Below are positions 21,652 to 36,060 of a stretch of 40,061 bases of DNA, in pieces. Below the pieces are notes generated by a model. That model saw only the letters and a list, made by a program, of their open reading frames with translations, did not search any database and had not been told where the DNA came from. The translations under genes and the position numbers were made by a program. Source of the stretch: Oscillospiraceae bacterium (lineage in GTDB: Bacteria > Bacillota > Clostridia > Oscillospirales > Acutalibacteraceae); contig SVOP01000006.1 in the NCBI GenBank assembly GCA_015066325.1, forward strand, positions 1 through 40,061, written 5' to 3'. Each line of letters opens with the position of its first letter. Position 1 is the first letter of the stretch.

Positions 21652-21826
21652 ATCAATGATAGCTCTCCACAAATGTGACAGTCGCTTTGCTATTAACAAA
21701 GCAACCAACAAAAACGCTTCCGGGTATATCGTTTTCGTTTCGGCAATTTCCCCTTTCGGCTTCTTCCTTGCCCCGCGGCTCTGAAACCTAATCTTGTCAA
21801 TCGCGCCTCTACCTAATTATTCAGTT
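21652..21826 (-). ncRNA. Lysine riboswitch (L box)
   Basis: Minus strand GGTAGAGGCGCGATTGACAAGATTA...GCCGAAAGGGGAAATTGCCGAAACGAAAACG...AAAGCGACTGTCACATTTGTGGAGAGCTATC matches the conserved L-box landmarks (AGAGGNGCG, GCNGAAAGGGG..GCCGAA, CTGTCA, GGAGNGCTATC). Confidence 0.92.
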
Positions 21827-35583: not shown

Positions 35584-35613
35584 AAAAACTCCACCTTCGA
35601 AAAGGTGGAGTTT
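35584..35613 (-). terminator. Terminator C, after tRNA-tail module 1
   Basis: aaactccacctt-cgaa-aaggtggagttt, perfect 12-bp stem; T run on minus strand. Confidence 0.85.
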
Positions 35614-35778
35614 GGTGCGAGAGACGGGACTGGCCGTCTGCGGCGGCTACGCCTTGCATACTATCCGCTCGGCGACCCAAATCCTACGGATTTCGGTACC
35701 CGCCTCCCGCTCCTCGCTAAAAACAGTCCACCGGACTGTTTTCTTAACGCTCAGACCCTCTCGGGTCCAAGCCCCGTC
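35613..35778 (-). repeat. tRNA-3'-tailed structured module 1
   Basis: Starts (+ strand) with tggtgcgagagacgggac, identical to the tRNA-Leu 3' end; gacgggac / gccccgtc 8-bp closing stem; internal hairpin aaaacagtcc-acc-ggactgtttt. Confidence 0.7.
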
Positions 35779-35788
35779 AAAATCATAA

Positions 35789-35829
35789 CAAAAAAACAGA
35801 GCAACCACAAATGTGATTACTCTGTTTTT
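35789..35829 (-). terminator. Terminator B, after tRNA-tail module 2
   Basis: Minus strand aaaaacagagtaatcaca..tgtggttgctctgtttttttt, 18-bp stem allowing G-U pairs. Confidence 0.85.
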
Positions 35830-35923
35830 GGTGCGAGAGACGGGACCTGACGGCGTCGCTACGCTTTGCCGTCAGAACGGCAACGATTGTGTTCGCCTTC
35901 GGCGAGGGGGTCCAAGTCCCTAC
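35829..35923 (-). repeat. tRNA-3'-tailed structured module 2
   Basis: Starts (+ strand) with tggtgcgagagacgggac; gggac / gtccc closing stem; inner hairpins ctgacggc..gccgtcag and tcgcc-ttc-ggcga. Confidence 0.7.
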
Positions 35924-35935
35924 CTTATTTCTGGC

Positions 35936-35977
35936 AAAAAAATAAAGAACCTACACTGAAGTGTAAGTTCTTTATTT
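35936..35977 (-). terminator. Terminator A of tRNA-Leu
   Basis: Minus strand aataaagaacttacac-ttc-agtgtaggttctttatttttttt hairpin right after the CCA. Confidence 0.85.
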
Positions 35978-36060
35978 GGTGCGAGAGACGGGACTTGAAC
36001 CCGTACGGGATTACCACACGCCCCTCAAACGTGCGCGTCTGCCGATTCCGCCACTCTCGC
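35977..36060 (-). tRNA. tRNA-Leu (anticodon GAG), CCA encoded
   Basis: Minus strand GCGAGAGTGGCGGAATCGGCAGACGCGCACGTTTGAGGGGCGTGTGGTAATCCCGTACGGGTTCAAGTCCCGTCTCTCGCACCA; acceptor GCGAGAG/CTCTCGC, anticodon stem CACGT/GCGTG, loop TTGAGGG, T arm ACGGG TTCAAGT CCCGT. Confidence 0.95.

What the first reader, a model, noticed from the sequence alone, without database searches (positions are those of the whole stretch)
35584..36060. Tandem modules ending in an exact copy of the tRNA-Leu 3' end, each followed by its own terminator
Seen: the 18-mer tggtgcgagagacgggac (on the minus strand GTCCCGTCTCTCGCACCA, i.e. T-stem, acceptor 3' strand, discriminator and CCA) occurs identically at 35977-35994 (true tRNA-Leu), 35829-35846 and 35613-35630. 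At each site the sequence right after CCA is a terminator hairpin, but the three hairpins are unrelated in sequence. Modules 1 and 2 lack the tRNA 5' half. In its place is a hairpin-rich insert that begins (minus strand) GGG[A/G]CTTGGACCC and can close on GTCCC (8 bp in module 1: GACGGGGC/GTCCCGTC). Established: islands that integrate at tRNA 3' ends displace old 3' ends plus terminators, giving such a ladder. Inference: either successive integration scars, or a family of CCA-tailed structured RNAs or tRNA-mimic elements. The shared internal start motif and closing stem are not predicted by simple scars.
Basis: partly seen in the sequence, partly recalled or inferred. Interest (0 to 1): 0.75.

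Follow-up and report, generated by a model that had tools for sequence, protein, structure and literature searches.

The report
tRNA-tail cassettes with mirrored T-arms
Behind many tRNA genes of gut Clostridia sit short (~150-base) non-coding cassettes that begin with a mirror copy of part of that very tRNA, contain a conserved set of hairpins, and end with an exact copy of the tRNA's 3' end plus a new stop signal; they look like a previously undescribed kind of tiny, self-repairing insertion at tRNA genes, though what moves them is unknown.

Summary
The 'GGG[A/G]CTTGGACCC' motif is the reverse complement of the tRNA's own T-arm. The same anatomy (tRNA, terminator, inverted T-arm of THAT tRNA, hairpin body, exact T-loop-to-CCA copy, terminator) occurs 97 times (body type A) in 17 of 22 genomes of the genus, behind 20 different tRNA/tmRNA genes, singly or in ~150-bp tandem arrays. 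The inverted copy is about 13 nt centred on the T-loop and matches the host tRNA almost perfectly. The body is a four-helix structure with 12 compensatory pairs. Module 1 is a second body type, found with the same architecture in other clostridial families. At this tRNA-Leu, a sister genome has no unit, another has one, the window has two, all ending in the same native flank. No Rfam family matches. An integrase island in a sister genome uses the same 23-bp T-loop-to-CCA copy, so T-loop-targeted site-specific insertion with tRNA repair is the likeliest origin. However, a unit-rich genome encodes only a housekeeping-like Xer recombinase, so the enzyme is unknown. A folded-hairpin attachment site (CTX phage or integron attC style) is my mechanistic guess. 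An RNA or tRNA-mimic role has no support.

The parts
35977..36060 (-). tRNA-Leu(GAG), the target gene; T-arm ACGGGTTCAAGTCCCGT; its last 18 nt (35977-35994) are the repeated R sequence
   Evidence: ARAGORN; Rfam RF00005; 18-mer
35936..35976 (-). terminator T1, found with units at this tRNA in G000, G008 and G007 (a related version in G004)
   Evidence: sequence; comparison; coordinates
35908..35920 (-). inverted T-arm of module 2 (GGGACTTGGACCC; one change from the exact reverse complement of the tRNA-Leu T-arm)
   Evidence: family-wide specificity
35850..35907 (-). module 2 hairpin body, type A: hairpin TCGCCGAAGGCGA (35893-35905), invariant ACACAATCG (35884-35892), hairpins at about 35869-35880 and 35853-35864
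35829..35846 (-). R copy 1 (GTCCCGTCTCTCGCACCA), exact tRNA 3' end closing module 2
35790..35828 (-). terminator T2; the same hairpin follows an Arg(ACG)-type unit in sister genome G007 (L082)
35763..35775 (-). inverted T-arm of module 1 (GGGGCTTGGACCC; GACGGGGCT pairs with AGTCCCGTC at the right end)
35634..35762 (-). module 1 hairpin body, type E, with AACAGTCCGGTGGACTGTT (35722-35740); same core behind tRNA-Lys, Ser, Ala and tmRNA in other clostridial families
35613..35630 (-). R copy 2, exact tRNA 3' end closing module 1
35584..35612 (-). native terminator T3; directly follows the tRNA in unit-free sister genome G014
   Evidence: (L200)

Best explanation
Each module is a ~130-bp non-coding insertion cassette that occupies the T-loop / 3' end of a tRNA or tmRNA gene. 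From the tRNA outward it carries a substitute terminator, an inverted copy of about 13 nt of the target's T-arm centred on the 7-nt T-loop, and a hairpin-rich body; it leaves an exact T-loop-to-CCA copy before the native flank. The tRNA 3' end and its terminator are thus restored, and the cassette is tolerated only behind the last tRNA of a transcript. SHOWN: the anatomy, the locus-specific mirror, the conserved structure, presence/absence at one orthologous site, tandem arrays, use of the same 23-bp copy by a tyrosine-integrase island, and serine-recombinase islands next to tRNA ends and terminal R copies. INFERRED: cassettes enter and leave by site-specific recombination with the crossover in the T-loop, by a recombinase acting in trans (host Xer or a visiting island's integrase). 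GUESS: the inverted core plus the direct core fold on one DNA strand into the attachment site that is used, as for CTX phage attP and integron attC.
For: 97 distinct type A units in 17 of 22 genus genomes. 76 of 86 right-hand copies match a tRNA/tmRNA 3' 18-mer exactly, and 65 of 66 match the upstream tRNA of the same locus (the exception is the same tRNA with 3 changes). The inverted T-loop has 3 mismatches in 553 against 92.6 +/- 6.6 when tRNAs are permuted; the next 3 nt toward the T-stem 5' strand, which do not pair with R, have 6 of 237 against 76.7 +/- 5.0; flanks are random. CCA-to-CCA span is 136-158 bp in single-unit loci, and CCA-to-core distance is 56-78 in 50 of 52. Structure: 97.4% of cells paired, 12 pairs changed on both sides, 147 such cells against 42.7 shuffled, and every slid control far lower. 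80 of 83 copies are followed by a terminator, against 20 of 240 random 60-mers. Ladder G014 (0), G008 (1), window (2) with a common native flank. In G008, 15 of 27 terminal but 0 of 15 internal tRNAs carry R copies, Fisher p = 0.0002. A tyrosine-integrase island at tRNA-Leu(GAG) in G013 ends in TTCAAGTCCCGTCTCTCGCACCA. An IMG/VR prophage (L265) with an integrase-like gene end abuts such a unit. Tyrosine recombinases using the 7-bp T-loop are known (Ms6, PMC1762012).
Against: No recombinase is tied to the units. G008, with 18 type A units, has no large serine recombinase, no Y1 transposase and one tyrosine recombinase resembling housekeeping XerC but below the curated cut-off. Absence at G014 could be deletion between ~20-bp direct repeats 128 bp apart, which needs no recombinase; the G014 and G008 flanks are 98% identical with G000 more distant, so loss in G014 is at least as likely as gain. 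True islands lack the inverted T-arm. Folding the other strand of module 2 is only weakly better than shuffles (z -1.3). Bodies at different tRNAs of one genome are no more alike than chance, so recent movement between tRNAs is not seen.
Confidence: 0.5

Rival explanations
1. Ancient, vertically inherited tandem duplications of tRNA 3' end plus terminator, with hairpin-repeat DNA between, kept identical by slippage or gene conversion; no site-specific mobility today.
For: Terminator T1 and body resemble each other more at the same tRNA across species than across tRNAs (T1: 27% against 2% of pairs at or above 0.75 identity; body 0.789 against 0.735). Arrays of near-identical units are what slippage makes (L046). 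G008 has no dedicated recombinase.
Against: Does not explain one body family behind 20 different tRNAs, nor an inverted 13-nt T-arm block matching each tRNA including nucleotides that pair with nothing in the unit, nor the same architecture with other bodies in other clostridial families.
Confidence: 0.27
2. Host-beneficial landing pads: arrays offer spare tRNA 3' ends so that incoming islands insert at a distal copy and spare the tRNA.
For: Serine-recombinase islands lie directly after the last R copy of unit arrays (L013, L059, L240) as well as directly after bare tRNAs (L229, L242).
Against: Explains neither the inverted T-arm nor the conserved body; islands at tRNAs already restore the gene. 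This would be a consequence rather than the origin.
Confidence: 0.08
3. A structured RNA family (CCA-tailed RNA, tRNA mimic, or read-through antisense element acting on the tRNA).
For: Conserved structure with compensatory changes; the inverted T-arm would be antisense to the tRNA's T-arm.
Against: Separated from the tRNA promoter by a terminator; few G-U intermediates; no Rfam match; several unrelated bodies share the same ends; the mirrored block is symmetric around the T-loop and stops after about 3 bp on each side.
Confidence: 0.08
4. Simple successive integration scars of decayed phages or islands with unrelated inserts.
For: Islands and a phage amidase remnant do occur at the same sites (L047, L248, L265).
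Against: Constant ~150-bp size, conserved body and structure, locus-specific mirror, over 90 copies.
Confidence: 0.04

Closest known systems
Tyrosine-integrase genomic islands at tRNA/tmRNA genes (Islander set, PMC4383910)
   Same: Target at the tDNA 3' end, tRNA restored, displaced 3' fragment marks the far end, tandem arrays; the same 23-bp copy is used by a real integrase island at tRNA-Leu(GAG) in G013.
   Different: No integrase, no genes, ~130 bp (Islander requires at least 2 kb and an integrase); inverted T-arm and structured body absent from the G013 island end.
Dehalococcoides ssrA islands with a Ccr-like serine recombinase (PMC3146451)
   Same: [quoted passage not shown] CcrB-like serine recombinases with ParB also sit next to tRNA ends here.
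   Different: Kilobase islands with genes; no inverted T-arm or hairpin body reported in the passages read; the units here occur behind 20 tRNA/tmRNA types.
CTX phage / IMEX elements using host Xer (folded inverted dif-like sites)
   Same: Inverted core, hairpin segment, direct core in one element; no own integrase; the unit-rich genome has only a Xer-like recombinase. (Anatomy of CTX attP from my own knowledge; its single-strand integration via XerCD is cited in PMC4792948.)
   Different: Target is a tRNA T-loop, not dif; no phage genes; single-strand folding untested.
Integron cassettes (attC/attI)
   Same: Order direct site, cargo, inverted site, hairpin body, direct site; conserved structure with weakly conserved sequence; short arrays.
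   Different: T-loop sequence instead of GTTRRRY boxes, no integron integrase above its cut-off, inner half of the core not double-stranded when folded, almost no gene cargo.

Membership tests
tRNA-integrating genomic island | exact 3' tRNA fragment displaced downstream, tRNA restored | tested here: met
tRNA-integrating genomic island | encodes an integrase or other genes | tested here: not met
   ~150-bp units without room for genes; one 2.3-kb gene-bearing exception, L047
tRNA-integrating genomic island | precise empty site in a relative | tested here: met
   G014 L200 against G008 and the window; direction of change not settled
Integron cassette / attC | integron integrase in the genome | tested here: not met
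   the only tyrosine recombinase found in G008 scores 83 bits against cut-off 265 for TIGR02249; MAG 95% complete
Integron cassette / attC | inverted and direct core sites at the ends of a palindromic, structure-conserved body | tested here: met
Integron cassette / attC | R-box core GTTRRRY / crossover AAC | tested here: not met
   core is the host tRNA T-loop (GTTCRA...)
CTX-type IMEX | attP formed by folding of inverted cores in single-stranded DNA, recombined by host XerCD | not testable with these tools
   anatomy compatible; needs biochemistry
Known RNA family (Rfam 15) | match at or above the gathering score within the unit | tested here: not met
   only tRNA, tmRNA, rRNA and neighbouring Gut-1
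MITE of a Y1/IS200-type transposon | Y1 transposase present where units abound | tested here: not met
   no Y1_Tnp in G008, G007, G005 or G013, all with many units

The most novel reading that the evidence does not exclude
A class-wide, gene-poor cassette system anchored at tRNA genes: short hairpin elements that carry a mirror copy of their target's T-loop core, fold as single-stranded DNA into a recombination site and insert into the matching tRNA with a host-encoded or borrowed recombinase, rebuilding the tRNA each time. In effect, an integron-like array whose 'attI' is the tRNA T-loop and whose specificity is set by a target-derived inverted core.
Probability: 0.22. Interest if true: 0.9.

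Novelty: new variant of a known kind. Interest (0 to 1): 0.72.

Why it matters
tRNA genes are among the commonest docking sites for mobile DNA, but the insertions known there are kilobase islands with integrases. Here is a recurrent, structure-conserved, gene-free unit of constant size whose ends mirror each target tRNA, in over 90 copies across one genus and with other bodies elsewhere in the class. If it moves, it would be among the smallest site-specific insertion units known and could give a folded-attachment-site system outside integrons and CTX-like phages. It also accounts for the tandem tRNA 3' ends in these gut clostridial genomes and warns that tDNA-fragment island finders and small-ORF callers will misread them.

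Tried and rejected
Type D body pattern (AACAAGGAGNATCNCGAAGCG) in 149 genomes of the order: none. Extended type E pattern in the same order: only the window; the shorter core found it in two other families of the class. Type A core in IMG/VR: none; type D: none; the 17-bp type E palindrome hits 22 viral contigs, of which only one (L265) shows a tRNA-unit context. Dedicated recombinase: tyrosine, large serine and Y1 families do not track unit number. A chimeric array (Leu-CAA unit followed by an Arg-ACG unit, L068) was set aside: contigs break inside arrays, so misassembly is possible. A first invT-specificity script used a window that was too short and gave a weak, misleading result; it was corrected. 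Upstream regions of the tRNA-Leu orthologues are mostly not syntenic, so gain and loss could not be placed on a tree from them. Literature searches found no description of such units; only open-licence papers were searchable, so a description elsewhere is possible.

Full report
OBSERVATION. The three exact copies of GTCCCGTCTCTCGCACCA, their coordinates, the three different terminators and the closing stems are all as reported. The chance expectation for the 18-mer is 0.01. ARAGORN and Rfam see only one tRNA, tRNA-Leu(GAG), at 35977-36060 minus.

WHAT THE MOTIF IS. The start motif GGG[A/G]CTTGGACCC is the reverse complement of the T-arm of the same tRNA (GGGTTCAAGTCCC), with one or two changes. 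Going from the tRNA outward, the order is: T-arm, CCA, terminator, inverted T-arm, hairpin body, T-loop half to CCA, terminator.

IT RECURS AT OTHER tRNAS. In the window's own genome (a MAG, 76.5% complete) the same order stands behind tRNA-Leu(TAA), Met, Lys and Ser(GGA), each time with that tRNA's own T-arm inverted and that tRNA's own 3' end copied. A pattern for the left part of the body found it in 17 of 22 genomes of the genus, and in none of 38 genomes of other genera. A scan of GTDB representatives gave 74 stretches with that core, all in Clostridia, Oscillospiraceae or Ruminococcaceae MAGs. Parsed out, there are 97 distinct type A units. Of these, 86 have a recognisable right-hand copy, 76 of them identical to a tRNA/tmRNA 18-mer, from 20 tRNA/tmRNA species. 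Where a tRNA is present in the locus, the copy belongs to it in 65 of 66 cases, and in the last it is the same tRNA with three changes. Units also sit at tmRNA (L081, L093). Arrays of 2-4 units with a ~150-bp period occur (L045, L046, L050).

THE MIRRORED CORE IS LOCUS-SPECIFIC. For 79 units, the inverted block was compared with 28 distinct T-arms. The seven T-loop positions have 3 mismatches in 553, against 92.6 (sd 6.6) when tRNAs are permuted. The next three positions, from the T-stem 5' strand, have 6 in 237 against 76.7. These three do not pair with the R copy, so matching the tRNA is not just a by-product of the closing stem. Outside about 13 nt the match falls to chance. A 7-nt centre with about 3 bp on each side is what the core of a T-loop-targeting recombinase would look like; phage Ms6 is such a case (PMC1762012).

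STRUCTURE. An alignment of 55 units supports a closing stem and three hairpins: 97.4% of cells paired, 12 of 25 pairs with changes on both sides, covariation score 0.310 against 0.134 shuffled and at most 0.074 for slid versions. The closing stem covaries trivially because both sides copy the tRNA, but 7 of the 12 covarying pairs lie in the internal hairpins. The linker AACA[C/T]AATCGG is nearly invariant. There are few G-U intermediates apart from one terminal pair, which fits DNA-level palindromes at least as well as RNA.

OTHER BODIES, SAME ENDS. Behind Glu, Arg(CCG), Tyr, Pro(TGG), Asn and Ser (G010) there are other bodies with comparable ends. Window module 1 is a type E body (core ACAGTCCGGTGGACTGT). 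It is seen behind tRNA-Lys, Ala, Ser and tmRNA in genomes of two other families of the class, again with the inverted T-arm of that tRNA. In G020, tRNA-Pro carries the same order as the window, type A then type E (L240).

LADDER. Orthologues of this tRNA-Leu: in G014 the tRNA is followed directly by T3; in G008 by T1, unit A, T3; in the window by T1, unit A, T2, unit E, T3. The T3 flank is homologous in all three (98%, 84% and 83% identity). Units are therefore gained or lost precisely. Because G014 and G008 are the closer pair, G014 may have lost the unit, possibly by slippage between the 20-bp copies. The ladder alone does not prove insertion by a recombinase.

INSERTION CONTEXT. Of 42 tRNAs in G008, 15 of 27 terminal ones but 0 of 15 followed closely by another tRNA have exact copies (p = 0.0002), as expected if each unit ends transcription; 80 of 83 copies are followed by a terminator. 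In G013 a 7.6-kb island with a 399-aa tyrosine integrase at this same tRNA ends with TTCAAGTCCCGTCTCTCGCACCA, so the copy used by the units is a genuine attachment-site fragment; that island has no inverted T-arm. CcrB-like serine-recombinase islands with ParB sit right after CCA of bare tRNAs (L229, L242) and after the last copy of unit arrays (L013, L059, L240), and one lies upstream of a tmRNA-type unit (L153). [quoted passage not shown]

ENZYME. G008, the genome with most units, has one tyrosine recombinase, XerC-like but below the curated cut-off (222 bits against 335), no large serine recombinase and no Y1 transposase. A dedicated mobiliser is therefore missing, at least there and now. 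Inverted core, hairpins, direct core without an own enzyme is the anatomy of CTX-type attachment sites folded from single-stranded DNA, and partly of integron attC (PMC4792948). This is a likeness of anatomy only. Integron membership fails on integrase and core sequence.

MECHANISM AND ODDS. Site-specific insertion with tRNA repair, about 0.5. Folded single-strand attachment site within that, about 0.2. Non-mobile old duplications, 0.27. RNA function, 0.08. Nothing here shows movement in action.

LIMITS. Most genomes are draft MAGs and contigs break in arrays, so array lengths are approximate. Only PubMed Central open papers were searched, so 'undescribed' means not found there or in Rfam.

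Noticed in passing
window 21652-21819 (minus): Lysine riboswitch (RF00168, 100.6 bits).
   Followed up: no
L193 2720-2898; similar repeats in L043 and L049: Gut-1 RNA (RF01706) matches lie just downstream of a tRNA-Ser unit array. Multi-hairpin repeats (ATCCACCC ... GTGAAAT-spaced hairpins ... GGGTGGAT) follow many of the terminal terminators in this genus.
   Followed up: no
L244, L248, L250, L251: Small islands with Rep-like, ParB and a 558-571 aa CcrB-like serine recombinase sit directly after CCA of several tRNAs (Leu-TAG, Pro-TGG, Tyr) or after terminal unit copies. Islander (2014) states that only tyrosine integrases were known to target tRNA genes.
   Followed up: partly
L224 (G229:C24): A type E body apparently inserted in the 3' end of a protein gene, flanked by 26-bp direct repeats TTGTCTCAAAGACAGCACCGTAAGGC that contain a small stem-loop, i.e. 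a possible non-tRNA target.
   Followed up: partly
L038 182-1440: A DUF4241 gene lies between two copies of the tRNA-Thr 3' end plus terminator, upstream of a unit.
   Followed up: partly
L068 (G012:C87): Array in which a tRNA-Leu(CAA) unit is followed by a tRNA-Arg(ACG) unit: either movement between tRNAs or misassembly at contig ends.
   Followed up: no
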